From: a virus
Direction: 5' to 3' (one strand)
Virus record (IMG/VR): IMGVR_UViG_3300020474_000018
Coordinates: 1-54,612 of that record
DNA: 54,612 nucleotides
This document shows, piece after piece, positions 24,297 to 43,862 of the stretch. A model generated the notes under the pieces. The model did no database searches, was not told the origin of the DNA, and saw nothing but the letters and a program-made list of their open reading frames with translations. Every line of letters begins with the position of its first letter. Position 1 is the stretch's first letter. The translations under genes and the position numbers were made by a program.

Positions 24297-24302
24297 GTAG
24301 AA

Positions 24303-25430
24303 ATGGCAAAGATATCAAAACTTAAAAAAGGTGCACTAGATATTGCCTCAATTCGAGGTATTATCAATAAGAAAGCCGGACGGGAAGTCGCACATTCACT
24401 TCAGGACAATAACCCTACAGAAGTAAATGAGTGGATTCCAACCGGCTCAAGGTGGCTTGATGCCATCATTTGCAAGGGTAGACCCGCGGGCATCCCTGTC
24501 GGCAAAATCTCGGAGATCGCAGGCCTCCCAGGCACTGGTAAGTCATTCTTGGCTGCTCAGATTGCTGGAAATGCTCAAAAGATGGGTATTGATGTAGTAT
24601 ACTTCGATTCAGAGTCTGCTATTGACCCTTCGTTTATGGAGCGCGCTGGCTGTGATCTAGACAGACTTATGTATGTTCAAGCAGCGTCTGTTGAGTTTGT
24701 CCTGGAAACTATTGAAGAGTTACTAGCCACTGGTAATAAATGGCTTTTCATTTGGGATTCTCTAGCCCTTACTCCGTCGATTTCTGATGTTGAAGGAGAC
24801 TTCAACCCTCAGTCATCCATGGCTGTAAAGCCAAGAATCCTGGCTAAGGGAATGTCTAAATTAACTATCCCCATTGCTGATGCGAACGCTACCTTTTTAG
24901 TCCTCAACCAACTGAAGACTAACCTAGGGGCAAGAACACCAGCACAAGCTATGACTGAACCATACACAACCCCAGGAGGAAAGGCTATGATCTATGCCTA
25001 TTCTCTTCGTGTGTGGCTGACTGCAAGAAAAGCTAAAGCTAGTTTCATCGTTGATGACAATGGTTTCCGCATTGGATCTGAAGTAAAGGTAAAGCTGGAA
25101 AAGTCTCGTTTCGGAACCCACGGCCGAACCTGTAACTTCAAGATCCTATGGGGCGACGATGCCGTCGGTGTCCAAGACGAAGAAAGCTGGTTCGATGCAA
25201 TTCAAATCTCTGAAAGACTTGAGCAATCTGGCGCATGGTTTACGTTAATTCACAATGATGGCTCTAAGGAAAAGTTCCAGCGCAAACAATGGGTCACTAA
25301 ACTTGAGAGTGAAAAATTTAGAGAAAGTGTCTTGACTATTATTGAAGAAGATGTTATTATGAAGTTCAAGAATAGAGAAGGCAAAGCAGACGATTTCTAT
25401 GATGCGGACGAAGGTCCGCCAGTAGAATAG
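24303..25430 (+). CDS. uvsX: UvsX/RecA-type recombinase
   Basis: The 375-aa protein has a RecA core: Walker A GLPGTGKS (74-81), a Walker B strand WLFIWDSL (147-154), a QLKTNLG DNA-binding-loop segment near 200-206, and the TPGGKAM segment after it. It would pair homologous DNA for repair and recombination-driven replication. It follows the gp32-type SSB gene, as partners in the same transcript, and ends at a strong terminator. The length is close to T4 UvsX (391 aa). Confidence 0.93.
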   Translation: MAKISKLKKGALDIASIRGIINKKAGREVAHSLQDNNPTEVNEWIPTGSRWLDAIICKGRPAGIPVGKISEIAGLPGTGKSFLAAQIAGNAQKMGIDVVYFDSESAIDPSFMERAGCDLDRLMYVQAASVEFVLETIEELLATGNKWLFIWDSLALTPSISDVEGDFNPQSSMAVKPRILAKGMSKLTIPIADANATFLVLNQLKTNLGARTPAQAMTEPYTTPGGKAMIYAYSLRVWLTARKAKASFIVDDNGFRIGSEVKVKLEKSRFGTHGRTCNFKILWGDDAVGVQDEESWFDAIQISERLEQSGAWFTLIHNDGSKEKFQRKQWVTKLESEKFRESVLTIIEEDVIMKFKNREGKADDFYDADEGPPVE

Positions 25431-25440
25431 TAACAATGAC

Positions 25441-25468
25441 AGCCCGCCTCTTTCGGCGGGCTTTTTTT
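25441..25468 (+). terminator. Rho-independent terminator after uvsX
   Basis: An 8-bp G/C-rich stem AGCCCGCC / GGCGGGCT (25441-25448 and 25455-25462) with a TCTTTC loop is followed by a run of T (25463-25468). The following gene's ATG is only 15 bases further. Confidence 0.95.
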
Positions 25469-25482
25469 ATGGAGAATATAAA

Positions 25483-26445
25483 ATGAACAGAATGATGATA
25501 GTAGACGCTTATAACCAGTTTATCCGCGGTTACATAGTAGACCCTAGCAAAAACCCAAACGGATCCCCTATCGGCGGTATGAGGACATTTATTAACATTT
25601 TGAATAAGCTCACAAGAGAGATTAAGCCAGATCTGATAGTTTTGGTTTGGGACGGCAAAGGTGGTAGCAAAAAAAGACGATCTATGAACAAAAACTATAA
25701 AGGTGGAAGGAAGCCTCCTCGAACAAATTGGTCTCAAGTTGGAATGGATCATGATGAGATTGTGGACAATAAAGTCTGGCAGCAAATGAGAGTGATTGAA
25801 TATTTTAATCAAACTCCTGTCATTCAATTCATGGAAAATTTAGTAGAGGCAGACGACGTGATTTCGTATATCAAAAACAAGCCCACATTTAAAAAATGGC
25901 AAAAAGTAATTGTATCAGCAGACAAGGACTTTATTCAACTACTTGATGAATTTACAGTGCTACATCGACCTATTCAAAAAGAGTACTTAAATAAGAACAA
26001 TGTTGTAGAGAAATTTAGGATCCACCCAACAAATTTTGCCCTCGCCCGCGCCATTGTTGGAGATAGTTCGGATAACTTACCTGGAGTGCCCAGGGTTGGA
26101 CTTGAAACAGTTGCAAAAAGATTTCCCTTTCTAAAAGAAGATACAACATACTACTTAGATAGTATTCTTGAAGAATGCAAGGACCCTAACAATAAACAAA
26201 AAGTTTATAAAAATATTTTAGAGTCAAAGGAGTTAATCGAAAACAATTATGATATTATGCAATTATCCTCTCCCATGTTATCTATTCAAGCTAAACAAGG
26301 GATCGACGATACGTTTGAGCACTATAAGCCACACTACAATCAAACGGAAATGAGAAAAAAGATGCTCAAAGATGGAGTATTGACAGTAGCAACAACTGAT
26401 TTAGAGCAAAGATTTAACAATATTATCACTTCCTTTTCACAGTAA
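25483..26445 (+). CDS. 5'-3' exonuclease / RNase H (FEN-like nuclease)
   Basis: The 320-aa protein shows the FEN/PIN-type acidic residues: D8 (MIVDAYN), D57 (VWDGKG), E122/D124/D125 (VEADDV), D147/D149 (SADKDF) and D194/D197 (GDSSDNLPGVPRVG), the last within a helix-3-turn-helix. It would remove RNA primers and 5' flaps, as T4 RNase H does. Here it is separate from the family A polymerase domain (19130), whereas Pol I has both in one chain. It lies between the uvsX terminator and the helicase gene. Confidence 0.9.
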   Translation: MNRMMIVDAYNQFIRGYIVDPSKNPNGSPIGGMRTFINILNKLTREIKPDLIVLVWDGKGGSKKRRSMNKNYKGGRKPPRTNWSQVGMDHDEIVDNKVWQQMRVIEYFNQTPVIQFMENLVEADDVISYIKNKPTFKKWQKVIVSADKDFIQLLDEFTVLHRPIQKEYLNKNNVVEKFRIHPTNFALARAIVGDSSDNLPGVPRVGLETVAKRFPFLKEDTTYYLDSILEECKDPNNKQKVYKNILESKELIENNYDIMQLSSPMLSIQAKQGIDDTFEHYKPHYNQTEMRKKMLKDGVLTVATTDLEQRFNNIITSFSQ

Positions 26446-26460
26446 TTTGTGTTACAGTAG

Positions 26461-26468
26461 TATAAATA
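26461..26468 (+). promoter_or_regulatory. TATAAATA element (T4 late-promoter-like) before the helicase gene
   Basis: TATAAATA is the exact core of T4 late promoters. Here it lies 14 bases before the helicase ATG. A helicase is not usually a late gene, so the role is uncertain. It may be only part of an ordinary -10 region. Confidence 0.3.
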
Positions 26469-26482
26469 TTTAAGGAACAGCA

Positions 26483-27862
26483 ATGGAGCAAGAAAACAAA
26501 AGCTTCTCAAAATTTGGAAAAAGCTTTCAGGAAGATCTGTGTCATATGATCCTGAACGATCGAACGTTTGCTGACCAAATGTTTGAAGTTTTAGATTTGA
26601 ATTTTTTAGAATTAAAACATTTGAGAGTTTTTGTTAAAAAAATTGAGGAGTATCGAAACAAATATGGAGTCCACCCCACACCTAATATCATGCATTCCAT
26701 CATTCGAACAGGTTTGGATGGCGAAGCAGAATCAGTCAAAGTTAGAATTAGGGAATACTATGCCCGGGTTTTGGCAAATGGAGAAATCCCCGACGGTGCG
26801 GACTTTATTAAAGATACGGCACTGGATTTTTGCAAAAAGCAAAAACTTAAAGAGGCATTAATTAAATCAGTAGAGCTTATTAAATCTTCATCTTTTGATG
26901 AGGTGTCAAAAGTTATCGATAATGCTCTAAAACTAGGATCGGATAATACATTGGGATATGACTATCTTGCAGACTTTGAAGCTCGCTTTGTTAAAAAATC
27001 TCGTGACCCCATTACGACGGGCTGGCACGACGTTGATGACATTTCTAAGGGAGGTCTTGGGAAAGGGGAGCTTGGTGTTGTTGTTGCTCCTACTGGTGCT
27101 GGGAAATCAATGGTACTTGTACATCTCGGGGCAGCGGCCCTCAAGGCCGGGAAAAATGTACTACACTACACACTGGAACTTGCTGATACTGTTGTTGCTG
27201 GTCGCTATGATGCTGCTATTACTGGTGTTGAACTAAAAAACCTGGTGGTGTTTAAGGAGAAGATATATGACGAAATCAGAGAGGTTGAGGGAAAGTTAAT
27301 AGTCAAAGAATATCCCACAAGAAGCGCCAGTATCCAGACAATTAAAAATCACGTTGAGAAGCTAAAAAGGCGTAATTTTAATCCGGATATGATCATTGTG
27401 GATTACGGAGATCTAATTCGACCAGAAAATAGTAGAAAAGATGAGAAAAGGCACCAACTCGAAACTATTTACGAAGAGCTTAGAGGAATAGCTCAAATTT
27501 GTGAGTGTCCACTCTGGACTGCATCGCAAACTAACAGGTCTGGGTTGAACGCAGAAGTGATCACAATGGAGTCAATCTCCGAGGCGTTCAACAAATGTTT
27601 TGTAGCAGATTTTATATTCACGGTGTCGAGAACCGTGGAAGATAAGAATACTAACCAGGGACGTATCTTTATTGCAAAGAACCGTAACGGCCCAGATGGA
27701 TTGGTGTATCCTCTGTTCATGGACACAAGCAACGTGAAAATTAAAGTCTTGCCAAAAACGGGTGAGACTGCCAATGATATTATCCAGAAATCTTCTGCTG
27801 AAAGGTTAGCAAACCTGAAAGAGAAGTACAAGGTTTTCAAGAAAGAAGGAGGAAAAAATTAA
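26483..27862 (+). CDS. Replicative DNA helicase, DnaB/T4 gp41-like
   Basis: The 459-aa protein has a helical N-terminal domain (1-160), a linker, and a RecA-type motor domain with Walker A APTGAGKS (202-209), Walker B MIIVDYGDLI (near 308-317) and a TASQTNR segment. It would unwind DNA at the fork with the primase and the phage polymerase. No primase gene is seen in this window. It shares one base with the start of the RNR gene. Confidence 0.92.
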   Translation: MEQENKSFSKFGKSFQEDLCHMILNDRTFADQMFEVLDLNFLELKHLRVFVKKIEEYRNKYGVHPTPNIMHSIIRTGLDGEAESVKVRIREYYARVLANGEIPDGADFIKDTALDFCKKQKLKEALIKSVELIKSSSFDEVSKVIDNALKLGSDNTLGYDYLADFEARFVKKSRDPITTGWHDVDDISKGGLGKGELGVVVAPTGAGKSMVLVHLGAAALKAGKNVLHYTLELADTVVAGRYDAAITGVELKNLVVFKEKIYDEIREVEGKLIVKEYPTRSASIQTIKNHVEKLKRRNFNPDMIIVDYGDLIRPENSRKDEKRHQLETIYEELRGIAQICECPLWTASQTNRSGLNAEVITMESISEAFNKCFVADFIFTVSRTVEDKNTNQGRIFIAKNRNGPDGLVYPLFMDTSNVKIKVLPKTGETANDIIQKSSAERLANLKEKYKVFKKEGGKN

Positions 27863-29724
27863 TGGAACTATCAAATCAAATCTTATCAGAAATTACAGTG
27901 CATATGAAGTACGCTAGATACTTGGAAGACAAAAAGCGTAGAGAAACTTGGGAAGAGCTTGTAACTAGGAACATGGAAATGCACCTTAAAAAATTTCCAG
28001 AATTAGAGTTGCAGATTAGAAAAGCATATAAACAGGTTTTTGATAAGAAAGTGCTACCGTCAATGCGCTCAATGCAGTTTGGCGGCAAGCCGATTGAGGT
28101 GGCTCCAAACAGGATTTTTAATTGTGCTTTCATGCCTGCGGATGACTGGCGCTGCTTTGGAGAGGCAATGTTTTTACTTCTTGGTGGAACAGGAGTAGGA
28201 TACTCTGTACAAAAGCATCACGTTGAAAAACTACCAGAAATCACTAGGCCTAATATGAAGCGCACAAGAAGATTCCTTGTAAACGACTCTATCGAAGGCT
28301 GGGCAGACGCAGTGAAAACTTTAGTTCGCTCATATTTTAATGGAGGTTCGAGACTTCGATTTGATTATACAGATATTCGCCCGAAGGGTGCTGCTCTCAT
28401 TACTTCTGGAGGCAAGGCCCCAGGCCCTCAACCCTTGCGTGAGTGCTTGGTAAAGTTAGAGGGAATGCTCTCGCAGAAGGAAAATGGAGATAAGCTAAAG
28501 CCAATTGAAGTACACGATATGATTTGTCATATAGCAGATGCTGTGCTGGCAGGTGGTATTCGTCGGGCTGCACTTATTTCACTGTTCTCGGCAGACGACG
28601 AGGACATGATTGCTGCAAAAACAGGAAATTGGTGGGAGACCAATCCACAACGAGGCCGAGCTAATAACTCTGTTGTTTTATTGCGTCACAAAATTGATAG
28701 AGAATATTTTATGAATCTTTGGGATAGAGTAAAGGCATCGGGAGCCGGCGAGCCTGGTTTTTATTTTTCAAATGATAAAGACTGGGGAACAAACCCTTGT
28801 TGTGAGATTGGTCTTAGGCCATACCAATTCTGTAACCTTACAGAAGTAAATGTATCAAACGTAGAATCACAAGATGATTTAAACGAGAGGGTGCGAGCAG
28901 CTTCTTTTATTGGAACCCTACAAGCCAGTTATACTGATTTTCACTACCTCAGAGATATTTGGAGAAGGACAACAGAGAGAGATGCCTTGATTGGTGTCTC
29001 AATGACTGGCATTGCCTCAGGCGCTGTTTTAGATCTTGATATGAAAGAAGCCGCAAAATGCGTGAAGCAGGAAAACGAACGCGCCGCAGAGTTGCTAGGC
29101 ATTAGACCAGCCGCAAGGACAACGTGCGTAAAACCTGCAGGTACCACTTCACTCACATTAGGAACGTCATCAGGGATCCACGCCTGGCATAATGATTATT
29201 ATATTCGAAGAATTAGAGTGGGCAAGAATGAACCAATCTATGACTACTTGATCAGCAACCACCCAGAACTTATAGAGGATGAATATTTCAGCCCTCACAC
29301 TACAGCTGTGATTTCCATCCCTCAAAAATCACCAGAAGGATCTATACTGAGAACAGAATCTGCGTTACAGCTTTTGAGGAGAGTAAAGCACGTAACAGAT
29401 GAATGGGTTAAGCCTGGTTTTCGCAAGGGCCAGAACACTCATAACATATCCGCAACCGTATCAATTAAAGATGCCGAGTGGGTTGATGTGGGTGATTGGA
29501 TGTGGGAAAATAGAAATAGTTACAATGGTTTGTCTGTGTTGCCATACAATGGAGGGACATACACTCAGGCCCCTTTTGAAGATTGCTCAAAGGAAACTTA
29601 TGAGGCCATGATGAATTCTTTAACTGGAATTGACCTCACCAAGGTCACCGAAGAAGAAGACAATACAGACCTTAAAGGTGAAGTAGCTTGCGCAGGCGGA
29701 GCATGCGAAGTGAAGTTTGTATGA
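27862..29724 (+). CDS. nrdJ: Ribonucleotide reductase, class II (adenosylcobalamin-dependent)
   Basis: The 620-aa single-chain enzyme reduces ribonucleotides to deoxynucleotides using B12. Seen are C88 (IFNCAF) and C324 (QFCNLTEV) as the likely redox pair, C313 in NPCCE as the likely thiyl radical site, the GGTGVGYS segment, and a C-terminal C610-x4-C615 pair for re-reduction. The compact size is like the monomeric Lactobacillus type. A second Cys in NPCCE replaces the usual Gly. It needs no oxygen and no NrdB partner, and depends on host B12. It overlaps the helicase and IscA genes and acts with ThyX and dUTPase in nucleotide supply. Confidence 0.92.
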   Translation: MELSNQILSEITVHMKYARYLEDKKRRETWEELVTRNMEMHLKKFPELELQIRKAYKQVFDKKVLPSMRSMQFGGKPIEVAPNRIFNCAFMPADDWRCFGEAMFLLLGGTGVGYSVQKHHVEKLPEITRPNMKRTRRFLVNDSIEGWADAVKTLVRSYFNGGSRLRFDYTDIRPKGAALITSGGKAPGPQPLRECLVKLEGMLSQKENGDKLKPIEVHDMICHIADAVLAGGIRRAALISLFSADDEDMIAAKTGNWWETNPQRGRANNSVVLLRHKIDREYFMNLWDRVKASGAGEPGFYFSNDKDWGTNPCCEIGLRPYQFCNLTEVNVSNVESQDDLNERVRAASFIGTLQASYTDFHYLRDIWRRTTERDALIGVSMTGIASGAVLDLDMKEAAKCVKQENERAAELLGIRPAARTTCVKPAGTTSLTLGTSSGIHAWHNDYYIRRIRVGKNEPIYDYLISNHPELIEDEYFSPHTTAVISIPQKSPEGSILRTESALQLLRRVKHVTDEWVKPGFRKGQNTHNISATVSIKDAEWVDVGDWMWENRNSYNGLSVLPYNGGTYTQAPFEDCSKETYEAMMNSLTGIDLTKVTEEEDNTDLKGEVACAGGACEVKFV

Positions 29725-30035
29725 TTACATTAACTGAAACTGCGGCTAACAAAGTTAGGGTAATGCTTTTAGAGAAAGAAGAAACTGGTTTAAGGGCAGC
29801 AGTCCAGGGCGGAGGCTGCTCTGGCTTTACTTATAAGCTGTTGTTTGATAACAAAAAAGATGGAGATAAGGTTATTTTCGACAAGGGTGTAGAAGTATAT
29901 CTTGATCCAAAGAGTTTCTTGTACCTTATGGGAACAGAAATTGATTTTATAGATGATCTCAACCAGTCAGGGTTTAAATTTGTAAACCCTAATGCCAAAA
30001 GGACTTGTGGCTGCGGAGAAAGTTTTTCTATTTAA
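29721..30035 (+). CDS. IscA/ErpA-type iron-sulfur carrier
   Basis: The start is ATG 29721, overlapping the RNR stop as ATGA. The longer frame from 29688 lies inside the RNR C-terminus. The 104-aa protein has the A-type carrier pattern: an N-terminal ITLTETAANKV and the three cysteines C33 (GGGCSGF), C96 and C98 (CGCGESF). It would hold or pass on Fe-S clusters. HesB/IscA genes occur in other marine phages, where a role in host metabolism during infection is presumed. Its target here is unknown. Confidence 0.92.
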   Translation: MITLTETAANKVRVMLLEKEETGLRAAVQGGGCSGFTYKLLFDNKKDGDKVIFDKGVEVYLDPKSFLYLMGTEIDFIDDLNQSGFKFVNPNAKRTCGCGESFSI

Positions 30036-30040
30036 AACTA

Positions 30041-30069
30041 TTGACAAACCTGTTAAAATATATTATTAT
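30041..30069 (+). promoter_or_regulatory. Sigma-70-like promoter before the 30101 operon
   Basis: TTGACA (30041-30046), a 17-base spacer and TATTAT (30064-30069). It lies in the gap after the IscA gene and would drive the 90-aa gene, groES, thyX and the lipoprotein gene. Confidence 0.8.
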
Positions 30070-30100
30070 TGTAATACAACTCAACAAGAAAGGATAAATT

Positions 30101-30373
30101 ATGAGTTCTAACGACGATAAACTACTAACCAAGGAAGAGCACCTTGCAAATTACATTAAAACATTTGTTGCAATTGAGGACGCTATGGAACCATTTAAGG
30201 AGCAGCGCAAAGATCTACGCGAATCTTATAATGAGAATGGGTGGTTATCCAAAGAAGAGATGCGCCTAGCTGTGAAAGCTTACCGACTGTACAAATCTGA
30301 GACTGACATGGAGATCTTAACAGATTATGTAAACAAGTGTCAACGCTCAGTTGGGAGGATCAATGGTCTCTAA
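30101..30373 (+). CDS. Small helical phage protein, function unknown
   Basis: The 90-aa protein is charged and all-helical, with MEPFKEQRKDLRESYNENG and a following WLSKEEMRLAVKAYRLYK segment. The helix-turn pattern weakly recalls GapR/DUF2312 DNA-binding proteins, but I cannot support that firmly. It is the first gene after a sigma-70 promoter and overlaps the groES gene by 11 bases. Confidence 0.6.
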   Translation: MSSNDDKLLTKEEHLANYIKTFVAIEDAMEPFKEQRKDLRESYNENGWLSKEEMRLAVKAYRLYKSETDMEILTDYVNKCQRSVGRINGL

Positions 30374-30686
30374 AATAGAAATGCTAAAGCCCGTAAATAG
30401 ACACCTGTTGATTGTTCCTCATGTCCACAAGGATGAAACAAATTCTGGAGTTTTATTACCGGAAGATTACAAGCCAGAGGAGAATCAATATATCGAAGCA
30501 TCAGTCATTGATATCGCTTCAGATTGTAGTAAGCAGTTTAGTCACTTAAGATATAACAATGTTGATAATAACAAGATTGTTGTAGATAAATCCATGATTC
30601 AAGAGGTTAAATTAAAAGAAAAAACTCACTATATGATTCTGGAGAATTATGTGGTAGGTGTTTACAGGAGGCCCAGTGAAAATTGA
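30363..30686 (+). CDS. groES: GroES-type co-chaperonin (T4 gp31 analogue)
   Basis: The start is ATG 30363 behind GGGAGGA (30352-30358), not the TTG inside that site. The 107-aa protein has the GroES pattern: a start like MLKPVNRHLLIVP, a mobile-loop region DETNSGVLLPEDYKP (about 22-36), then beta strands and a final VVGVYRR. T4 gp31 replaces GroES so that the chaperonin can fold the large capsid protein. A phage GroEL lies at 46223, so both halves of the chaperonin are encoded. It overlaps thyX by 11 bases. Confidence 0.85.
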   Translation: MVSKIEMLKPVNRHLLIVPHVHKDETNSGVLLPEDYKPEENQYIEASVIDIASDCSKQFSHLRYNNVDNNKIVVDKSMIQEVKLKEKTHYMILENYVVGVYRRPSEN

Positions 30687-31380
30687 TCTGTTTGGTGACA
30701 ACATAGGTGCGGTTGAATACATTTCACATATGGGTACGGATCTGTCAGTTGTTAATGCAGCCAGGGTATCGTTCGGCTCAAAAAAAGAGGAAGTAGATGA
30801 AAAAGATATTAAACTTATTAACTATCTTATGGCACACAATCACTCTTCGCCATTTGAACATTGCACTATCACATTTCGTTTTACCGTTCCTTTGTTTATT
30901 AGGAGCCAGCATCACAGGCATCGCACTTGGGCTTACAATGAGATATCTCGTAGGTATACTTCTGTAGATATTCAATTTTATGAACCAGAAGAGTTCAGGA
31001 CACAACACAAATCAAATAGACAGGCTAGCACCGACAGTCTTTTCGACCCATTGCTAGAATCAAACAGAGATGGCTCCCCGACTTTATCTACGGCTTCTAC
31101 TCAGGTAAAGTCCCATCACAAGGAAAGTTTGAGACTTTTTGAAAGCTTGCTTGAATCAGGGGTTTGCAGAGAACAAGCCAGAGGTGTGTTGCCACAAAAT
31201 CTTTACACTCAATACTATGGAACTGTTAACTTGCACAACTTACTAAAATTTATCTCTTTGAGATCTCACGGTGGAGCCCAGTGGGAAATTCAGCAAGTCG
31301 CAGAGGCTTGTTTAGAAATCGCAGAGGAGTTTTTTCCTCACTCTGTGCATTCTTTTATAAAGCACAAAATGGAAGATTAA
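30676..31380 (+). CDS. thyX: Flavin-dependent thymidylate synthase ThyX
   Basis: The start is GTG 30676, 4 bases after AGGAGG (30666-30671), overlapping the end of groES. The 234-aa enzyme makes dTMP from dUMP using FAD. The ThyX signature RHR-x7-S is exact (R81-H82-R83 to S91, then RRY). An N-terminal ARVSFG and the late LHNLLKFISLR helix also fit. It acts with dUTPase (39283), which supplies dUMP, and with RNR. Confidence 0.95.
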   Translation: MKIDLFGDNIGAVEYISHMGTDLSVVNAARVSFGSKKEEVDEKDIKLINYLMAHNHSSPFEHCTITFRFTVPLFIRSQHHRHRTWAYNEISRRYTSVDIQFYEPEEFRTQHKSNRQASTDSLFDPLLESNRDGSPTLSTASTQVKSHHKESLRLFESLLESGVCREQARGVLPQNLYTQYYGTVNLHNLLKFISLRSHGGAQWEIQQVAEACLEIAEEFFPHSVHSFIKHKMED

Positions 31381-33431
31381 TGAAAAAAATAGCACTTCTC
31401 CTATTATTATTTGCATGCTCAGACAGCAGCGTCACTACTGGTGGTTTTGATACTCAGGTTACCAGGCCCATGATACCAGATTCGTCTGTGGTTGACATTC
31501 AAGTGGTTGAAATACCAGACATCACCGTTGATGTTTGGGTCAACCCTTGTGCAGATATCCCGAATACACATGTCAGATTCTGTGATTGCAATCCAAGTTG
31601 TTGTCAGAGGCAAACCTGGTATTGTCCACCCACTGGAACAGAAATTCAGGCTAAATACGCGGTGTTAGATATTTGCGACGAGACACTGACCCCATGCGAC
31701 AGAAACAGAGATCCTGCTTGTCCACCTGCCGAGATAATTGAAGAGACTGGTTGCCAACATGCTTTTGATTGCCCTCCTGGAATAAATGAGGACTTTACAA
31801 TGTATTATGATTGTGAGGTAGATGGCAATTCAGGTAGACAAGAAGTTAAGTGTGACAAGGGGAGGTTGTACTACGGAGAATGTATTACATGCTTCGAAGA
31901 AGAGGAGGTTTGTGATTTTCAGGATAACGATTGTGATGGTGAGATCGATGAGGGCCAAAGAAATGCGTGTGATGGCTGCGGTACTGTACCAGAGGATATC
32001 TGCGATGGCCTCGATAATGACTGTGATGGCACCTCAGATGAGCAGCTGATTAGAGAGTGTACGACTGAGTGCAACTCAGGCCTTGAGATATGCGCAAATG
32101 GGAATTGGATCGGCTGCACAGCACAGAGGCCACAAGATGAACAATGTGACGGAGAAGATAACGATTGTGACGACCTTGTCGACGAAGGATTAAACTGTCA
32201 GTGTCCACCAGAGATGGTCGGGGCCCTGATACCTTGCATGGAACCACCACTGCTTTGTGGTATGGGGTTCAAAACCTGTGAATGTGTTAACGAGGATTGC
32301 CAAATTACTCAGATGACGGACTGTTTTGCAGCATGTCATTGGGTACCAGAACTGGCCGGAGGGTTACCTTGCGATCAGATGATGGGGTTGGCGATCGAGC
32401 CAGAACTATGTAATAATTTTGATGAAGATTGTGATCTATTAATCGACGAGCGATTATCTAGATCGTGCTACACCGGACCAGAAAATACACTGAACGTAGG
32501 TGTCTGTGAACCCGGAAGCCAGATTTGCAACGCGGGCCAGTGGTACGGAAGACGAGCTACGGGGAACTACACACTTGGAGTTTGCACTGGAGAGGTCCTT
32601 CCCTCTGAAGAAATCTGTGATGGAGCAGATAACGACTGCGATGGTATTGTAGATTTTGGAGAAGAAATACCAGAAACTGATATTTTATTTATTGTTGACT
32701 GGTCCGGCTCGATGGAGAACTACATAAATGCGGTACGAATGGCCATGAACCGGTTCGCTCAAACTTTTGAGGCAGAAGATAAGTTAAAATGGGGGCTGAT
32801 CGTCGGCCCTAGACTATTGCCAAACGAACTTGACGATTACGGGAGGATGAAAGAGGGACTCATATTGCAGTCAGATATCGCTGAATTTGAGGATTTTTTG
32901 ACTGCATTTGCCAATGTTGGGCAATTTGATAATCAGACAGGTAATGAGATGTTGAAAGATGCATTGTTACTTTCGGTGAGGAGTATATCTGGAAATCTTA
33001 ATTACGACTTCAGTAGTTCAGTATGGTCTAATAGAACCGGATCTCTGCCTCCGCTTCAGAGTTTTAAAGTAACATGGAGATCAAATGCAGATCGAGTTAT
33101 TGTATTGTTTTCAGATGAGCATGATCAGACATTTTTGGTACCTCGTGTTTCGGATCAAGTTGCTCTTCAGGCACTTACGGGCACTCCGAATCTAAAGACT
33201 TATATATTTGCAGACTTCCCTGCACCTTGGAGAAACTACGCTAATGATACTGGAGGAAGAGTGTTTGACTTATCTTCAAATCAGCAGCAAATGTATGATG
33301 ATTTAATGTCTATATTAGATGAAATATGCCTATCTGGCGAAGCTTCTAATAATATCAACAGTTTGCCTCAAGGTTTTTACCCTGCTTCTTTTAGGGCAAG
33401 GTATAATCACAAGATTGGCATATGCTTCTGA
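31380..33431 (+). CDS. Lipoprotein with MopE-type Cys/Asp repeats and a VWA domain
   Basis: The start is ATG 31380, overlapping the thyX stop (TAATG). The 683-aa protein begins MKKIALLLLLFAC, a lipoprotein signal with the lipid Cys at C13. It then has five repeats of the form C(D/N)G.DNDCDG..DE near 176, 205, 253, 341 and 410, like the MopE putative metal-binding motif, in a Cys-rich stretch. From about 435 to the end it has a VWA domain with the MIDAS start DWSGS (440-444). It would sit on the outside of a membrane. Such proteins are typical of Myxococcota-like bacteria, and it is unusual in a phage. Superinfection exclusion or surface change are guesses. Confidence 0.85.
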   Translation: MKKIALLLLLFACSDSSVTTGGFDTQVTRPMIPDSSVVDIQVVEIPDITVDVWVNPCADIPNTHVRFCDCNPSCCQRQTWYCPPTGTEIQAKYAVLDICDETLTPCDRNRDPACPPAEIIEETGCQHAFDCPPGINEDFTMYYDCEVDGNSGRQEVKCDKGRLYYGECITCFEEEEVCDFQDNDCDGEIDEGQRNACDGCGTVPEDICDGLDNDCDGTSDEQLIRECTTECNSGLEICANGNWIGCTAQRPQDEQCDGEDNDCDDLVDEGLNCQCPPEMVGALIPCMEPPLLCGMGFKTCECVNEDCQITQMTDCFAACHWVPELAGGLPCDQMMGLAIEPELCNNFDEDCDLLIDERLSRSCYTGPENTLNVGVCEPGSQICNAGQWYGRRATGNYTLGVCTGEVLPSEEICDGADNDCDGIVDFGEEIPETDILFIVDWSGSMENYINAVRMAMNRFAQTFEAEDKLKWGLIVGPRLLPNELDDYGRMKEGLILQSDIAEFEDFLTAFANVGQFDNQTGNEMLKDALLLSVRSISGNLNYDFSSSVWSNRTGSLPPLQSFKVTWRSNADRVIVLFSDEHDQTFLVPRVSDQVALQALTGTPNLKTYIFADFPAPWRNYANDTGGRVFDLSSNQQQMYDDLMSILDEICLSGEASNNINSLPQGFYPASFRARYNHKIGICF

Positions 33432-34204
33432 AGAATGTAGTTATCGGCTCTAGTGTAGAGTCTGCATTTTATGCCCTTTTAAATGAATGTTATTTTATAC
33501 CCACACTCAATCTACCGCCGATGTTTTATAATGTCTTGGATATTCCTATTCTTGGCTTAAAAACAGAATCTGAAGCCTGGCCAAAAATAAATTTAATTCT
33601 TGGCATACTTTCAAGAAGAATTGCTATTGATGGTCAAAATTCAATTAAAATAGTTGACAATCAAATAAAGATTACAAACGGAGTATCAAATTTTAAGTAT
33701 AGGTTTGAAAAATTATTTGTCTTTGACCCGTCTGGTGTTCAGTTGGAGAACAATATAAAAACTGCAAAACCAAAAACTTTTGTTGTTCTAGACGATTTTG
33801 AGCTTTCCATTTTGGGCGAAAAGAGATACAACTTAAAACCAATTATTCGAAAAGCCGGCTTCGCAAGTCGGTTACATTTCTATTCATCAGACAGGGTAGA
33901 TGGTTCAAATTTTATCACAGATTGTGTAGTACAATCACAATTAACCCAGGATCAGTTAAATTCATTTGACTATTCTGATACAATGGCAAGATTCGTAGTT
34001 GAGAGGCATTTGAACTCCATAGGCGTTTATGGACGAGCCATGACCAAGTACAAAAGTGGAAAAATTAAGTATCGAAAACCTAAGGTTTCACATATGAAGA
34101 GGTTAGTTCGCGAACAAGATAATAATGTATATGAGGAATCTGAAAGCGTGAAATTTCTAAACTTATCATTGGGGAAAATAATTGAAAAAAGCACCAAAGG
34201 GTAG
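33422..34204 (+). CDS. Conserved-looking phage protein, function unknown
   Basis: The 260-aa protein opens LLKNVVIGSSVESAFYALLNE and later has VFDPSGVQLEN, VVLDDFEL, HFYSSDRVDG, FDYSDTMARFVVERHL and a basic KIKYRKPKVSHMKRL stretch. I recognise the style of a conserved marine-phage protein but no function. The start resembles a nucleotide-binding beta-alpha unit, though no GxGxxG is present. It overlaps the lipoprotein gene before it and the nucleotidyltransferase-like gene after it, which suggests they are made together. Confidence 0.7.
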   Translation: MLLKNVVIGSSVESAFYALLNECYFIPTLNLPPMFYNVLDIPILGLKTESEAWPKINLILGILSRRIAIDGQNSIKIVDNQIKITNGVSNFKYRFEKLFVFDPSGVQLENNIKTAKPKTFVVLDDFELSILGEKRYNLKPIIRKAGFASRLHFYSSDRVDGSNFITDCVVQSQLTQDQLNSFDYSDTMARFVVERHLNSIGVYGRAMTKYKSGKIKYRKPKVSHMKRLVREQDNNVYEESESVKFLNLSLGKIIEKSTKG

Positions 34205-35042
34205 AAATGTAGCAGGGATTGTTCCTTTAGCGGGATGGAAAAATTCTTTTGATTTCCCCTGGCCAGATTACTTGCAACCTCTTCGGGAAGGTTTTCTAGC
34301 ACTAGAAAGATCGGTATACGAATGCGCCTACGCGGGATGTGACTCTATATGGGTCGTCTGTAATGATGACATTGCTCCTGTGGTAAGAACGAGGCTGGGC
34401 GACTATGTTATGTCACCTAAATATTTTGATGAGAAACAGTTTGTTAAAAATAAAGAGTATCATCAAAAGTGGATTCCAATCTTTTACACTCCTGTGAGCC
34501 AGAAGGACAGAGACCGAAGAGACAGCTTGGGGTGGTCAGCACTTCATGGGGCATTGATGGCATTTCAAATATCAGACAAAATGAGTCAATGGGTTCTTCC
34601 GACTAAATATTATGTATCTTTTCCGTATGGAATATACAATCCAGAGTTCTTAAAAAAACATAAGGATGCGATCAGAGGTCCCGACTCATTTTTTATATCA
34701 TACGAACAGAAGACGGTTAGAGACAACCTATACTTGGGGTTCACATTTAAGCCAGAGGATTGGCCCAAATTTAAGCACCACATAAAAGATCAGTGCACTG
34801 GAGGCAGCAGGGCTTTGCCGGCACATGAAAGATGGTCAAGTCGTCATTTTACTCTTGACAAAATATTCAATGTTGATGTAATATCAGTAGATAAGAAGGT
34901 CGAAGTACCTGAGTATTACAATATGGATACTTGGGACAGTCTACTGGAGTATTACAATTCAGAGATGAAAATACCTAGGCCAACCAAGCAATTTATGAAA
35001 CCATACTACCACAGGAGAATAATAGAAAATGAAGAATATTGA
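34182..35042 (+). CDS. Nucleotidyltransferase-like (GT-A fold) phage protein
   Basis: The 286-aa protein starts at TTG 34182 behind GGGGAAAAT. It begins GIVPLAGWKNSFDFPWPDYLQPL, then ALERSVYECAYAGCDSIWVVCNDDIAPV. This recalls sugar-nucleotide transferases, where an N-terminal G-x-G loop, a P-L-K/R region and a strand with DD follow in the same order. The true Gly-rich loop and metal Asp are not clear, so activity is unproven. It overlaps the previous gene by 23 bases. Confidence 0.55.
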   Translation: MKKAPKGRNVAGIVPLAGWKNSFDFPWPDYLQPLREGFLALERSVYECAYAGCDSIWVVCNDDIAPVVRTRLGDYVMSPKYFDEKQFVKNKEYHQKWIPIFYTPVSQKDRDRRDSLGWSALHGALMAFQISDKMSQWVLPTKYYVSFPYGIYNPEFLKKHKDAIRGPDSFFISYEQKTVRDNLYLGFTFKPEDWPKFKHHIKDQCTGGSRALPAHERWSSRHFTLDKIFNVDVISVDKKVEVPEYYNMDTWDSLLEYYNSEMKIPRPTKQFMKPYYHRRIIENEEY

Positions 35043-35226
35043 AGAAACTTATAACATGATGCCAACAATAATAAAGCAGCATGCAGGTATGCCAGACAAC
35101 TATATTAACTTGACAACAGACCAAAAAAGGTTTATAATAGAGATGTTCGATATTGATAGGGAAGCAGTGAGAGCATCCCTCAAGGAAACTCTAGAAGAAA
35201 TGAAAGGTTTAGTTAATGAACTCTAG
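35029..35226 (+). CDS. Small helical protein upstream of dnaE, function unknown
   Basis: The 65-aa protein overlaps the nucleotidyltransferase-like gene (14 bases) and dnaE (11 bases). Its second half is a charged helix (DREAVRASLKETLEEMKGL). Tight overlap with dnaE suggests it is translated with the polymerase. A role as a polymerase partner is only a guess. Confidence 0.65.
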   Translation: MKNIEETYNMMPTIIKQHAGMPDNYINLTTDQKRFIIEMFDIDREAVRASLKETLEEMKGLVNEL

Positions 35227-38200
35227 AACAGAAAGCTCTATCCCATTCGTCGGCCTGCATGCCCATTCAGTTGCCGGCTCACCATTTGATGCCCTCGGGT
35301 ATCCACCAGAACACATGGACTTTGCTTATGGCAATGGTATGGACGCATTAGCACTTACAGATCATGGCAACATGAACGGCCTCGCTTGGCAAGTTCTTCA
35401 CGCTAAAAAGATGAAGAAAGCCGGCAAAGAGTTCAAACCTATTTTTGGCTGTGAAGCTTACTTTATTCCGTCCGTTGCAAAGTGGAAGGAAGAATACGAA
35501 GAGATCAAGAACGCTGCAAAGAAGAAGTCTGACTACGAGGCAGATAATTCAGGTACTACTGTAGAAGACGAGGGTGCTTCCAAGAAGAAGATCAAGTCTG
35601 TCCTCAACCGCCGCCGTCACCTTATTTTGCTGGCTATGAACCAGACAGGCCTCCAGAATATCTTCAAGATGATTTCGCGCTCTTACAGCGGAGATAATTT
35701 TTATCGCTATCCTCGTGTTGACTATGCTCTCCTTAAGAAACACAACGAAGGCGTCATTGCTGCTTCGGCTTGTCTTGGTGGAGTTTATGCTGGTAACTAT
35801 TGGGAAAACCGCGACGTTGGCCCAGATGCTATTCTCGGAGCAATGCGCCAAACCACACAGAAGATGCAAGATATTTTTGGTGACAGATGGTATGGGGAAC
35901 TCCAGTGGAACAATGTTCCAGAGCAGCATGAACTCAACCGCTACATCATTCAAATGAACCAGGAGTTTGGTATCGATCTTATCTCAACTGCTGATTCACA
36001 CTATTATAACGCAGACGTTTGGAAGGATCGCGAACTTTATAAGCGACTAGGCTGGCTAGGTAAAGGTAGGCCGGACTATTTATCTGACGAGCTTCCTGTA
36101 TCTGTTGAAGAAGTCGGTTACGAGCTTTACCCTAAGAATGGTGACCAGATGTTTGAATCGTACAAGAAGTACTCGAAAGAATGCGGAGCAGAATACGATG
36201 ACAAGCTGGTACTCGATTCGATCAAGAGGACACACCAAATTGCGCATGAGAGGATTGAAACATTCCTTCCAGACAACACAGTTCGCTTGCCCGACTTTGT
36301 GGTCCCGGAGGGGTCAACCGCGGGCCAGACCTTGGCTGCCCTTTGTGTGGAGGGCCTCCGGTCTCTCGGTCTTGCTAATGAGCAGAAGTACGTTGATCGC
36401 CTTAAGCACGAGGTCAATGTTATCGAAGATCGAGGGTTCTCGAAGTATTTTCTAACAATGAAAGCGATTGCCGATGTTGCAGTTACTAGACAACTTGTTG
36501 GCGCTGGCCGCGGCTCTGCTGCTGGTTCACTTGTTGCGTATGTTCTAAATATTACTCAAGTCGATCCTATTAAATATGGACTTCAGTTTGAGAGATTCTT
36601 AACCAAGGGCGGCTCAGGTTACCCAGATATTGACTATGATGTATCTGATCCTATGACTCTCAAAGAAGAACTGATTGACGAGTGGGGTGATGACTCAGTT
36701 GTGCCGATCACAAACTGGAACACGCTGCAACTTCGATCTCTGATCAAGGATATTTCAAAGTTCTACGGTATAGAGTTTACTGAGGTTAACAACGTAACAA
36801 GCAAGATGGTCTATGAAGCCACACCTCTTGCGAAGAAGAAGCATGGAATTACAGCAGGTGTGTATGTCCCAACGTTTGAAGAGTTAATGGAGTTTTCAGA
36901 ATCACTGCAGAAATTTTTGCAAAAGTACCCACATATTAAGACACACATTGAAAAGCTGTATGGCCAGACACGTTCTGCTTCTCGACATGCGGGTGGTGTT
37001 GTTGTGGGTGAAAACCTGGATAAGTGGATGCCTCTAATCAACTCAGGAGGAGTTAGGCAGACACCATGGTCTGAGGGTCAGAACGTGCGTCATCTTGAGC
37101 CCATGGGTTTTATCAAGTTTGACATCTTGGGCCTTGCTTCACTACGAATGTTGGAGGGAGCCATCGAGCGCATACTTCGCAGACACCACGGAATGAGTGA
37201 CCCAACATTCGCAGACATCAAAGACTACTATGACAAGAACCTGCACCCAGAGGTCATTGATCTAGAAGACAAGGATGTCTGGCAAAACATTTTCCACAAA
37301 GGCAAGTGGGCCGGCATCTTCCAGTTTACAGAAACTGGGGCACAGTCATTTTGTAAGAACGCAAGGCCTGACAATATCATTGACTTGGCTGCTATCACTT
37401 CTATTTATCGTCCTGGTCCGCTAGGTGCAGGAGTAGACAGAAAATATATCGGAGCAAAGTCTGAACCAGAGGAAGTAGAATATGTCAACAAGCACGTCAG
37501 AGAAGTAACAGAGGAAACATATGGTTTCCTTATTTTTCAGGAGCAGATTGCTATGCTGGCCCACAAGCTTGGCAAGGGCCTGTCTCTTGATGAGGGTAAT
37601 AAACTTAGAAAACTACTTACTAAGAAAGGTACAGGCGCAGTACAAGCAGAGAAAGACAAAATTTTTGATAAGTTCAAGCGCGGTTGTATCGAGAAAGGAA
37701 TGAAAGACTATGAGGCAAGAGAACTATGGGAAACTTTTGAGTACTTTTCAGGATATGGTTTTAACAAGTCACACGCTGTATCCTACTGTGTACTATCCTA
37801 TCAGTGTGCTTATCTACTTAACTACTATCCAGCCGAATGGTTAGCAGCCTTCTTGGATAAGGAGCCAGAAACAAGAAAGGAAAGGGCGATCGCCACAGCA
37901 AAATCACTCGGCTACAACGTTGAGCCCTTAAATGTAAACACATCTGGAGTAAACTGGGAAATCAGCAAAGATGGAAAAACTTTGATCCAACCACTGTCTT
38001 CCATTAAAGGCTTGGGTATTAAGGCCATCGAGCAGATTATACAACACAGACCGTTTAAGACAATAGAGGAATTTTTATTCCATCCAGAAATAACTTATTC
38101 GAAATTGAATAAAAAATCCATACAGGCCCTGACCTTATCTCAGGCAATGAATAGTCTAATAGACGACCGCTTCACTGGGTTGAAACATTTTTGGAACGCA

Positions 38201-38650
38201 GTGGCGGAAGATAGACCAAGAAAAGAAAAGAATCTATTAGAGAATATTGAAGCATACGCTCCAACTGGAGATTTCTCAGAGGAAGAAAAGTTAGAATATC
38301 TAGTTAATTTAACGGGAGTGTTTCCAATAAATGCGGTGGTTACACCGAGAGTTAGGAACAAGTTAGAGGAACTTTATATTCCTCCAATTTCTGAATTTGA
38401 TCCTGAGCTTGGGGTAACATGGTTTATCCCCAGAGAATGTAAGCTGAAAAAGTCAAAGAACGGAAAGAACTTTTATGTTGTCAAAGTTATCGACGACAAC
38501 AATGAAACGACAGTAATTAGGTGTTGGGGTGTAGACCCCGATAAAGATATTGTACAAATCAACAGGCCTTATATGGCCAGATTGAATTACAATCAACAGT
38601 GGGGTTTTTCCACTTTTAGTATGAGAAAGATGTTTAAGCTATTAGCATAA
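35216..38650 (+). CDS. dnaE: DNA polymerase III alpha subunit (DnaE type)
   Basis: The 1144-aa protein is close to bacterial DnaE in length (E. coli 1160). The N-terminal PHP domain has HAHSVAGSPFDAL (from residue 15) and DHGNMNGL. The palm has the catalytic Asp residues D471 and D473 (PDIDYD) and D636 (KFDILGL). The fingers have GFNKSHAVSY, and an HhH-like IKGLGIKAIEQI segment follows near 935. The C-terminal part is OB-like. No separate proofreading subunit or clamp is seen here. Most T4-like phages use a family B polymerase (gp43), so this is an unusual replacement. The last 600 bases are more A/T-rich than the rest. Confidence 0.93.
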   Translation: MNSRTESSIPFVGLHAHSVAGSPFDALGYPPEHMDFAYGNGMDALALTDHGNMNGLAWQVLHAKKMKKAGKEFKPIFGCEAYFIPSVAKWKEEYEEIKNAAKKKSDYEADNSGTTVEDEGASKKKIKSVLNRRRHLILLAMNQTGLQNIFKMISRSYSGDNFYRYPRVDYALLKKHNEGVIAASACLGGVYAGNYWENRDVGPDAILGAMRQTTQKMQDIFGDRWYGELQWNNVPEQHELNRYIIQMNQEFGIDLISTADSHYYNADVWKDRELYKRLGWLGKGRPDYLSDELPVSVEEVGYELYPKNGDQMFESYKKYSKECGAEYDDKLVLDSIKRTHQIAHERIETFLPDNTVRLPDFVVPEGSTAGQTLAALCVEGLRSLGLANEQKYVDRLKHEVNVIEDRGFSKYFLTMKAIADVAVTRQLVGAGRGSAAGSLVAYVLNITQVDPIKYGLQFERFLTKGGSGYPDIDYDVSDPMTLKEELIDEWGDDSVVPITNWNTLQLRSLIKDISKFYGIEFTEVNNVTSKMVYEATPLAKKKHGITAGVYVPTFEELMEFSESLQKFLQKYPHIKTHIEKLYGQTRSASRHAGGVVVGENLDKWMPLINSGGVRQTPWSEGQNVRHLEPMGFIKFDILGLASLRMLEGAIERILRRHHGMSDPTFADIKDYYDKNLHPEVIDLEDKDVWQNIFHKGKWAGIFQFTETGAQSFCKNARPDNIIDLAAITSIYRPGPLGAGVDRKYIGAKSEPEEVEYVNKHVREVTEETYGFLIFQEQIAMLAHKLGKGLSLDEGNKLRKLLTKKGTGAVQAEKDKIFDKFKRGCIEKGMKDYEARELWETFEYFSGYGFNKSHAVSYCVLSYQCAYLLNYYPAEWLAAFLDKEPETRKERAIATAKSLGYNVEPLNVNTSGVNWEISKDGKTLIQPLSSIKGLGIKAIEQIIQHRPFKTIEEFLFHPEITYSKLNKKSIQALTLSQAMNSLIDDRFTGLKHFWNAVAEDRPRKEKNLLENIEAYAPTGDFSEEEKLEYLVNLTGVFPINAVVTPRVRNKLEELYIPPISEFDPELGVTWFIPRECKLKKSKNGKNFYVVKVIDDNNETTVIRCWGVDPDKDIVQINRPYMARLNYNQQWGFSTFSMRKMFKLLA

Positions 38651-38662
38651 AGGAGAAATAAT

Positions 38663-39295
38663 ATGGCTAAATTAACAGGACTGGCTGCAAAAGTTGTAGC
38701 AGATCAGTATAAAAAAACACTAGAAAAGAAAGGGTTTGCATTTTTTGAAAATGGAGACTACAACTTAAACATCGTTGGAGTAAGAAATAACTCTGGCGAT
38801 GCTTCCAAATTTGATGACTTCATCAATGTTATCTATAAGGTAAGCGGAGAGTGGGTATGTGATACTTACCCAGTGACTACCGAGCCAGGCCCTTCAATCT
38901 TGCGAAGACCGCTAAAAGAAGTTGCCCACAAGGGAACCGCGATCTTGGTTCCGGGCCAATACAGAAGCACTTATAAGATCGACTGGCACGGAAACAGAGA
39001 TAGGGGCCATATGGCGCTGTGCCAGAGAGGTGGCCAAGTTAGTGTATGGAGAGACAACAATAGAGATACAACTCCTGACTACCACGGCCCTGAAGATGTA
39101 GGGTGGTACGGTATCAACATCCACAAACACCGCGGCTCAGATGCACGAATAAATACGGGAGGCGCCTCCGCCGGCTGCCAAGTTTTTCAAAGTAGTGTAG
39201 ACTTTGCAGAGTTTATGGAAATCTGCTCAGACGCTAGAGATCAATGGGGCAACAGTTTTACGTATACACTATTGGAGGAAAAATGTCTTTGTTAG
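38663..39295 (+). CDS. L,D-transpeptidase-like cell-wall enzyme, lysin candidate
   Basis: The 210-aa protein has a C-terminal segment with H154 (GINIHKH) and then S169-A-G-C172 (GASAGCQVF), the spacing of the YkuD-type His...SxGC active site. An upstream KVSGEWVCDTYPVTTEPGP resembles the front of the same fold. Such folds act on peptidoglycan peptides. There is no signal peptide. It could be a lysin or a wall-modifying enzyme carried late in infection. A strict YkuD match is not proven. It overlaps the dUTPase gene. Confidence 0.55.
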   Translation: MAKLTGLAAKVVADQYKKTLEKKGFAFFENGDYNLNIVGVRNNSGDASKFDDFINVIYKVSGEWVCDTYPVTTEPGPSILRRPLKEVAHKGTAILVPGQYRSTYKIDWHGNRDRGHMALCQRGGQVSVWRDNNRDTTPDYHGPEDVGWYGINIHKHRGSDARINTGGASAGCQVFQSSVDFAEFMEICSDARDQWGNSFTYTLLEEKCLC

Positions 39296-39753
39296 AAGAA
39301 AATTTTGTTAGAGTATTTCACACGCATGAAAATGTTAAAACACCCATCAGAGCACATCCAACTGATGCAGGAATGGATTTCTTTTTTTGTCCTAAGGATA
39401 AGACAATCCAAAGAAGAATTGATCCAGGACAAAGTGTTCTACTTGAGACTGGAATCAAGATGGAGGTTCCTCAAGATTGTATGTTGCAGATCATGAACAA
39501 GTCGGGCATCGCAAGCAAGAAGCACTTAATTGCAGGCGCCTGCGTCGTTGATGAGGGATACAGTGGAGAGATTTTTGTAAACCTTCATAACATTGGAAAA
39601 ACAGCACAATTTATCGAGCCTGGCCAAAAAATTGCCCAAGGCGTTTTTGTGAGAATTGAAAAACCTAATATTAAGATTCTTGAAATGGATAATATCTACG
39701 GCGGAGAAACAGCAAGAGGCAAAGGCGCTCTTGGCTCAACGGGAGATATCTAA
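39283..39753 (+). CDS. dut: dUTP pyrophosphatase (dUTPase)
   Basis: The start is ATG 39283 behind GGAGGA (39274-39279), not the in-frame upstream ATG at 39244. The 156-aa trimeric-type enzyme shows the family motifs: DAGMDFF (28-34), MNKSGIA (71-77), VVDEGYSGEI (88-97) and the C-terminal RGKGALGSTG (145-154). It turns dUTP into dUMP, keeping uracil out of DNA and feeding ThyX. It overlaps the genes on both sides. Confidence 0.95.
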   Translation: MSLLEENFVRVFHTHENVKTPIRAHPTDAGMDFFFCPKDKTIQRRIDPGQSVLLETGIKMEVPQDCMLQIMNKSGIASKKHLIAGACVVDEGYSGEIFVNLHNIGKTAQFIEPGQKIAQGVFVRIEKPNIKILEMDNIYGGETARGKGALGSTGDI

Positions 39754-40010
39754 TGGCTAGCTTTGCAAGAAAGTTAAAAAGAAAGCAACTTGTCGTGGCT
39801 AGGAAAAAGTTTATGAAAGACTTTAAAAGGTCTATGTCAAAGTTTAAGAAGCAAGTCATGTGCTCTAAATGTGGTAGGCAACCATATCCCGGAGAGAAGA
39901 TAGACAACTGGCATATTGATAAATATTCAGAAAAGATTGACTTAATCTGTACAGATTGCTATACTGGAGAAGAAAGTGAGGAAACAAATGAAAACAGCAC
40001 TGAGCTTTGA
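39753..40010 (+). CDS. Small basic zinc-ribbon-like protein, function unknown
   Basis: The 85-aa protein has a strongly basic N-terminal half (KRKQLVVARKKFMKDFKR) and two CxxC pairs (C37/C40 and C66/C69) with WHIDKYS between them, suited to binding one zinc. A nucleic-acid role is plausible but unproven. It shares one base with the dUTPase stop and overlaps the IMPDH-like gene. Confidence 0.7.
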   Translation: MASFARKLKRKQLVVARKKFMKDFKRSMSKFKKQVMCSKCGRQPYPGEKIDNWHIDKYSEKIDLICTDCYTGEESEETNENSTEL

Positions 40011-41196: not shown

Positions 41197-41528
41197 AAGA
41201 ACACCACCCAGATAAAGTTGTCAAATTTGTTTTTAGCGTGTACGAAAAACTTTCAGCAGATCTAAAGATAAGATTAAGATACGACAACTTAAGCCAGACT
41301 AAATTTTTTGCTGGAATAGTCAAGCTTTATTTAGAAAATGATGAGAATATGATGAAGGTTATGTACAAAGTTAAACAAAATGCCGCGTCTATGGGTAAGA
41401 GCAAATTGAACAGAACAATAAAAGATATAAACAGAGGAGAAAATATTATGGAACAATTAGGAATCACAGATTCTGACAAACAAAGTATATTTGATTTGAT
41501 TGAGATGGATTCACAAGAATATGAATAA
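41193..41528 (+). CDS. Small phage protein, function unknown
   Basis: The 111-aa protein overlaps the IMPDH-like gene (ATGA). The first 70 residues are basic and helical (FVFSVYEKLSADLKIRLRYDN), and the end is acidic. An internal ATG at 41448 lies 8 bases after AGAGGAG (41433-41439), in frame, and could give a 26-aa C-terminal form. No family is recognised. It overlaps the sigma-R4-like gene by 8 bases. Confidence 0.65.
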   Translation: MKEHHPDKVVKFVFSVYEKLSADLKIRLRYDNLSQTKFFAGIVKLYLENDENMMKVMYKVKQNAASMGKSKLNRTIKDINRGENIMEQLGITDSDKQSIFDLIEMDSQEYE

Positions 41529-41733
41529 AGAGACTTGTAAATGTTGCGGAAGAGAAAAAGAAAAATGTTGGATAGATTACCCAGAAGATGACAACTGTAT
41601 ATATGAGACCATCAGAAAACATGGTCCTATAACACTAGATGAGGTCTCAAAGAGACTGGGTATATCTCTGGTAAGAGTGGCTCAGATTGAAAAACAAGCA
41701 TTAAAGAAACTTTCTAAGAGAATAAAAATATGA
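41521..41733 (+). CDS. Sigma-70 region-4-like protein with zinc-like cysteines
   Basis: The 70-aa protein has four cysteines near its start (C6, C9, C16, C26) and then a helix-turn-helix with ITLDEVSKRLGISLVRVAQIEKQALKKL (37-64). This is a close match in pattern to sigma-70 region 4.2 (LTLEEVG..LGVS.ERVRQIE..AL.KL). It has no region 2, so it could not act as a full sigma factor. It may bind RNA polymerase or DNA and redirect transcription. I chose ATG 41521, which overlaps the previous stop. Confidence 0.8.
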   Translation: MNKETCKCCGREKEKCWIDYPEDDNCIYETIRKHGPITLDEVSKRLGISLVRVAQIEKQALKKLSKRIKI

Positions 41734-41806
41734 CTTTTATCCAAAAAACTTACTATTTATAGTTGTACAAATACACTATTCACTAATTTGAAAAGGAGAA
41801 TATAAA

Positions 41807-42415: not shown

Positions 42416-42444
42416 GATAAAAATTTGTTATCACGTTCTATATG

Positions 42445-42479: not shown

Positions 42480-42482
42480 GTT

Positions 42483-42511: not shown

Positions 42512-42517
42512 CAAATA

Positions 42518-43842: not shown

Positions 43843-43862
43843 TTATACAGAGGAGCCTTAAC

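What the first reader, a model, noticed from the sequence alone, without database searches (positions are those of the whole stretch)
31380..33431. Phage-encoded lipoprotein with MopE-type repeats and a VWA domain
Five CDG.DNDCDG..DE repeats, a lipobox and a DWSGS MIDAS are seen in one chain, translationally coupled to thyX by TAATG, so it is part of the phage and not assembly contamination. Such proteins belong to surface proteins of Myxococcota-like bacteria. It may have been taken from the host and could mask or block a receptor. It also gives a clue to the host.
Basis: partly seen in the sequence, partly recalled or inferred. Interest (0 to 1): 0.8.

Follow-up and report, generated by a model that had tools for sequence, protein, structure and literature searches.

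The report
Marine phage integrin-like surface lipoprotein family
A large group of uncultured ocean phages carries, among its DNA-replication genes, a gene for a lipid-anchored protein with an integrin-like binding head; the phages swap versions of it with each other, so they probably use it to change the surface of the bacteria they infect.

Summary
Window 31380-33431 encodes a 683-aa lipoprotein with a Cys-rich N-domain, five MopE (PF11617) repeats and a C-terminal VWA domain with a complete MIDAS. It overlaps thyX and the next gene, and the same junctions recur in dozens of independent contigs, so it is not a chimera. It is not a recent host acquisition. It belongs to a phage family (about 110 IMG/VR contigs, 40-82% identity for the main type) with no hit in 50,697 deposited phage records, PHROGs or NCBIfam. 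All 30 contigs with a dnaE of at least 73% identity and enough upstream sequence have it at this slot. All 47 non-lipid cysteines, the repeat ligand positions and the MIDAS are (nearly) invariant. The gene and thyX follow a different history from their neighbours, so they are exchanged as a cassette between phage backbones. Cellular relatives match only the repeats (mostly Myxococcota/Deltaproteobacteria, about 30-50%). No host link was found; Shine-Dalgarno usage argues against Bacteroidota. Best reading: an envelope-displayed binding protein made during replication, most likely for superinfection exclusion or receptor masking (inferred, about 0.4). This is a new variant of the phage surface-lipoprotein kind.

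The parts
31380..33431 (+). phage MopE-VWA lipoprotein, 683 aa (type I)
31380..31418 (+). type II signal peptide and lipobox LFA^C13
   Evidence: sequence; lipobox found in 47 distinct N-termini of the family
31422..31424 (+). Asp at position +3 after the lipid Cys (43/47 D, 2/47 E in the family): probable sorting determinant
31536..31907 (+). Cys-rich N-terminal domain (residues 53-176), no confident match in the PDB
31911..31952 (+). MopE repeat 1, CDFQDNDCDGEIDE
32001..32042 (+). MopE repeat 2, CDGLDNDCDGTSDE
32145..32186 (+). MopE repeat 3, CDGEDNDCDDLVDE
32409..32450 (+). MopE repeat 4, CNNFDEDCDLLIDE
32616..32657 (+). MopE repeat 5, CDGADNDCDGIVDF
32670..33335 (+). VWA domain (residues 431-652)
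   Evidence: AF2 model and fold search
32697..32711 (+). MIDAS DxSGS (residues 440-444)
   Evidence: invariant D, S, S in 49/49
32946..32948 (+). Glu523, invariant, at the place of the MIDAS Thr/Glu (Glu in integrin beta)
   Evidence: 49/49 Glu; the equivalence is inferred from spacing
33075..33116 (+). WRSNADRVIVLFSD stretch (W566, R567) up to MIDAS D579, like the WR..A.R.L.V.TD strand of integrin beta
33336..33428 (+). variable linker and conserved C-terminal ..RY.....C[FY]-COOH tail (C682; could pair with C650)
30676..31380 (+). thyX, cassette partner upstream
33422..34204 (+). conserved unnamed gene downstream, 10-nt overlap

Best explanation
The gene encodes a phage lipoprotein made together with the replication proteins. 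Sec exports it, lipid is added at Cys13, and it is anchored in the host envelope, probably the outer membrane. A disulfide- and (probably) calcium-stabilised stalk, made of the N-domain and MopE repeats, carries a VWA head whose MIDAS metal site binds an acidic group on a partner. The most likely use is to change the infected cell's surface: the head holds or covers a surface structure, or a competing virion's adhesin, so that further adsorption fails (superinfection exclusion or receptor masking). Shown: the architecture, the conservation, the conserved genomic slot and the cassette exchange. Inferred: timing, location, metal binding, the partner and the exclusion role.
For: Lipobox and +3 Asp are kept while the rest of the signal peptide varies. 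All 47 non-lipid Cys are conserved in at least 47/49 representatives, and the repeat acidic positions are nearly invariant. MIDAS D440, S442, S444, E523 and D579 are invariant. The VWA fold is confident (pLDDT mostly 80-94; Z about 17-18). Purifying selection: median dN/dS 0.064, from only 6 usable pairs. The gene sits in a replication operon and is coupled on both sides, which fits production during infection rather than a virion part. It was present at the slot in 30 of 30 usable contigs with dnaE of 73% or more. Alleles are exchanged between backbones (9 label changes on its tree against 2 on dnaE; AU p 6e-5 against one clade) and reach distant myoviruses (sheath 39-41%), as expected of a gene under changing host or competitor pressure.
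Against: There is no experiment, no expression data, no known host and no known receptor. The alleles do not track the putative tail fibre, whose similarity follows the phage backbone, so a match to the phage's own receptor is not shown. Known exclusion lipoproteins (T5 Llp, Cor) are small, and Llp acts from the periplasm (PMC9586334). A 47-Cys, 70-kDa protein is costly for plain receptor blocking.
Confidence: 0.42

Rival explanations
1. Adhesin for cell-cell or cell-particle contact: the infected cell is made sticky through the integrin-like head, so that progeny are released next to new hosts or the cell stays on a particle.
For: The head has a complete integrin-beta-like MIDAS. Calcium-stabilised stalks and VWA heads are typical of adhesins (own knowledge). 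Type I and type II copies stand in tandem in several phages, which would fit a two-part adhesin.
Against: No partner is known. Most phages have one copy. No particle-attached lifestyle was shown.
Confidence: 0.25
2. Uptake or scavenging protein: like MopE or CorA of methanotrophs it captures a metal or nutrient at the cell surface for the infected cell.
For: PF11617 is named after copper-binding MopE. The phage encodes ThyX and an RNR similar to phage RNRs annotated as B12-dependent.
Against: No histidine column is conserved, so the MopE copper site (His, His, kynurenine; PMC3423442) has no counterpart. The MopE-type repeats occur in many unrelated surface proteins.
Confidence: 0.12
3. Envelope protein for lysis or assembly: it holds the outer membrane or a lysis protein in place, or controls lysis time.
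For: In the outgroup phages L197 and L206 the same slot holds a secreted transglycosylase-like protein (by eye). In L037 one stands directly upstream of the lipoprotein (by eye).
Against: No constant association with a lysis gene; the constant neighbours are replication genes.
Confidence: 0.1
4. Recent cargo taken from a Myxococcota host.
For: MopE repeats are most alike in Myxococcota and Deltaproteobacteria. Cells of that kind also have VWA lipoproteins.
Against: Best cellular hits cover mainly the repeats at about 30-50%. The VWA profile scores under 33 bits in all 284 Myxococcota genomes. The family is present throughout the phage clade.
Confidence: 0.05

Closest known systems
Phage exclusion lipoproteins T5 Llp and T1 Cor
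   Same: phage-encoded, type II signal, expected to act at the outer membrane during infection
   Different: those are small and Llp acts from the periplasm on FhuA (PMC9586334); this one is 683 aa with a Cys-rich stalk and a VWA head; no shared sequence is apparent
MopE and MopE-related proteins (PF11617)
   Same: same CDG.DNDCDG..DE repeat, above the Pfam cut-off
   Different: no conserved His for the copper site; has lipid anchor, N-domain and VWA head
Integrin beta I domain and other VWA/MIDAS domains
   Same: VWA fold with invariant DxSxS, Glu523, Asp579 and a WR..A.R.L.V.TD-like strand
   Different: sequence match is marginal (E 0.008); bacterial virus, lipid anchor, no alpha chain
Myxococcota-type lipoproteins with MopE repeats and/or VWA
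   Same: same building blocks; one MAG filed as Patescibacteria (L145/L218) has lipobox, MopE, CYTGP and VWA in one chain
   Different: distant (VWA about 24-42 bits); none with the phage N-domain and full arrangement was found

Membership tests
PF11617 (MopE metal-binding motif) | HMM score above the curated cut-off | tested here: met
   46.9 bits against 27, three stretches
MopE copper protein (Methylococcus) | copper site of two His and one Trp-derived kynurenine | tested here: not met
   no His column conserved in 49 representatives (site from PMC3423442)
VWA domain | Pfam score above cut-off | tested here: not met
   PF00092 16 bits against 23.8
VWA domain | VWA fold | tested here: met
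   AF2 model residues 427-659; VIA Z 16-18.7 over 166-195 residues, Foldseek E 5e-6
VWA domain | MIDAS residues (DxSxS, Thr/Glu, Asp) | tested here: met
   D440, S442, S444, E523, D579 in 49/49; the Glu523 equivalence is inferred from spacing
Integrin beta I domain | clear homology to integrin beta | tested here: inconclusive
   best PDB sequence hits are integrin beta-8 at E 0.008; integrin beta and TFIIH-subunit chains have similar Z
Bacterial lipoprotein | type II signal peptide with lipobox and Cys | tested here: met
   LFA^C; lipobox in 47 distinct N-termini; lipidation itself not testable
Bacteroidota LES surface lipoprotein | acidic export signal after Cys in a Bacteroidota host | tested here: inconclusive
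   C-x-D-(E/D) resembles SDDDD/SDDFE (PMC5080379), but the phage uses Shine-Dalgarno sites in 52% of genes against 9% in a Flavobacterium phage
Phage superinfection-exclusion lipoprotein | blocks adsorption or entry of a second phage | not testable with these tools
   needs a cultured host

The most novel reading that the evidence does not exclude
These phages display a viral counterpart of an integrin on the infected cell: type I and type II lipoproteins, found in tandem in several phages, form a paired metal-dependent receptor that binds specific partners. This would be a dedicated viral adhesion system traded between marine myoviruses.
Probability: 0.12. Interest if true: 0.88.

Novelty: new variant of a known kind. 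Interest (0 to 1): 0.62.

Why it matters
A 70-kDa, 47-cysteine surface lipoprotein that is kept at a fixed place in the replication genes of a widespread uncultured phage group, and swapped between backbones, implies strong selection on what the infected cell shows outside. It gives a concrete handle on how marine lytic phages compete at the cell surface. It also adds a family that phage annotation libraries do not hold.

Tried and rejected
Assembly chimera: rejected, the same junctions occur in many independent contigs. Host from DNA matches: 24300-43850 against 284 Myxococcota genomes matched repeat codons, plus a few weak matches elsewhere (RNR region and one short site); no spacer or phage contig was recognised (short spacers could be missed). 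Co-variation with the putative tail fibre: not seen; fibre similarity follows the backbone. Fold of the N-terminal domain: no PDB match below E 0.25; this does not show a new fold. Close isolates: none; nearest RNR in Microcystis phage Mel-JY01 (67%), which has no copy. Literature: no open paper held all four terms phage, von Willebrand factor, lipoprotein and MopE.

Full report
Observation. The window is a 54.6-kb viral record with myovirus genes (tail sheath) and replication genes. The ORF at 31380-33431 reads as a 683-aa protein: short signal with lipobox LFA^C13, a linker, a Cys-rich N-domain (53-176), five MopE repeats, a VWA domain (431-652) and a short tail ending in CF. Pfam recognises the MopE repeats (46.9 bits, cut-off 27) and only hints at VWA. 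The AF2 model built from 36 relatives gives a confident VWA domain. Foldseek and VIA place it among VWA/integrin domains (E 5e-6; Z about 17-18).

Family. The viral-contig scan gave 78 loci with 40-82% identity, most of them full length. No relative was found in 50,697 phage records, and there was no PHROG or NCBIfam match. In 49 representatives all 47 non-lipid cysteines are conserved in at least 47, the acidic positions of the repeats are nearly invariant, and MIDAS residues D440, S442, S444, E523 and D579 are invariant. The residue at +3 from the lipid Cys is Asp in 43 of 47 distinct N-termini. The C-terminus usually ends in C followed by Y or F. Median dN/dS is 0.064, from only 6 usable pairs.

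Wider family. Further scans found a type II form that can replace type I at the same slot or stand next to it in tandem (L042, L182, L246; a shorter second copy is also indicated in L252-L254). A third form without the C-terminal tail (L259-L266, L268, L271-L274) occurs in phages with other neighbours, including an outgroup phage (L197) that lacks the gene at the slot. Together about 110 contigs are involved.

Locus. In about 60 loci the order is groES-like, thyX, lipoprotein, W33422, W34182, dnaE. Of contigs found through dnaE, all 30 with dnaE identity of 73% or more and enough upstream sequence have the lipoprotein there; the 8 with dnaE of 68% or less and upstream coverage do not have it there. 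In L191 thyX is followed directly by the W33422 homologue: the empty site. The lipoprotein overlaps W33422 by 10 nt in 48 of 58 loci.

Exchange. Pairwise identities of uvsX, fen, helicase, W33422, W34182 and dnaE rise and fall together (Spearman 0.74-0.93). The lipoprotein agrees with thyX (0.59) and hardly with the rest (0.15-0.32); thyX behaves the same way. Backbone labels need 2 changes on the W34182, W33422 and dnaE trees, but 9 on the lipoprotein tree and 8 on thyX. One-clade grouping is rejected on the lipoprotein tree (AU p 6e-5). The labels were set from W34182 identity before the lipoprotein tree was built. Relatives also occur in distant myoviruses (sheath 39-41%); in L055 the gene is again joined to thyX by a 4-nt overlap. 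So the cassette moves between phages while the slot stays filled.

Origin and host. The VWA profile scored under 33 bits in 284 Myxococcota genomes. In 287 genomes of the phylum of the MAG behind L145 only that MAG had a match, a MopE-VWA lipoprotein. No host-specific DNA match was recognised in Myxococcota. Shine-Dalgarno sites precede 52% of window genes (background 11%) against 9% in a Flavobacterium phage (background 17%), which argues against a Bacteroidota host. The host remains unknown.

Mechanism. Placement among replication genes, the conserved lipid anchor and the conserved binding head fit a protein made during infection and shown in the envelope. Frequent allele exchange fits a role at a contested interface. 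Superinfection exclusion or receptor masking is the most likely use, adhesion the main rival; neither is tested here. The tail-fibre comparison gave no support for a match to the phage's own receptor.

Noticed in passing
window 45615-46163, 49844-50761 (-), 50825-52681: Proteins that begin with a shared tag like M..LIMENWR.F, also common in relatives; reminiscent of the capsid-targeting leader of T4 internal proteins (own knowledge).
   Followed up: partly
window 30351-30686 and 46223-47791: GroES-like and GroEL genes in the phage, far apart; also IMPDH (39976), ClpP (43153), HSP20 (49363) and HesB/IscA-type (29688) genes.
   Followed up: partly
window 33422-34204 and 34182-35042: Two conserved genes without Pfam or PHROG name next to the lipoprotein; the second looks nucleotidyltransferase-like by eye.
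   Followed up: no
L197:4960-5544, L206:4596-5186: In outgroup phages the lipoprotein slot holds a secreted transglycosylase-like protein (by eye).
   Followed up: no
records of L044 and L067 (G293:C1:142296-147326, G290:C1:48914-49306): Open frames of 5,829 and 5,536 aa with a weak match to the sheath protein.
   Followed up: no
records of L016, L017, L042, L055: Two tail-sheath-like genes in one phage genome.
   Followed up: no
L145/L218: A 1.17-Mb complete MAG filed as Patescibacteria encodes a MopE-VWA lipoprotein, the nearest cellular match for the VWA part.
   Followed up: partly
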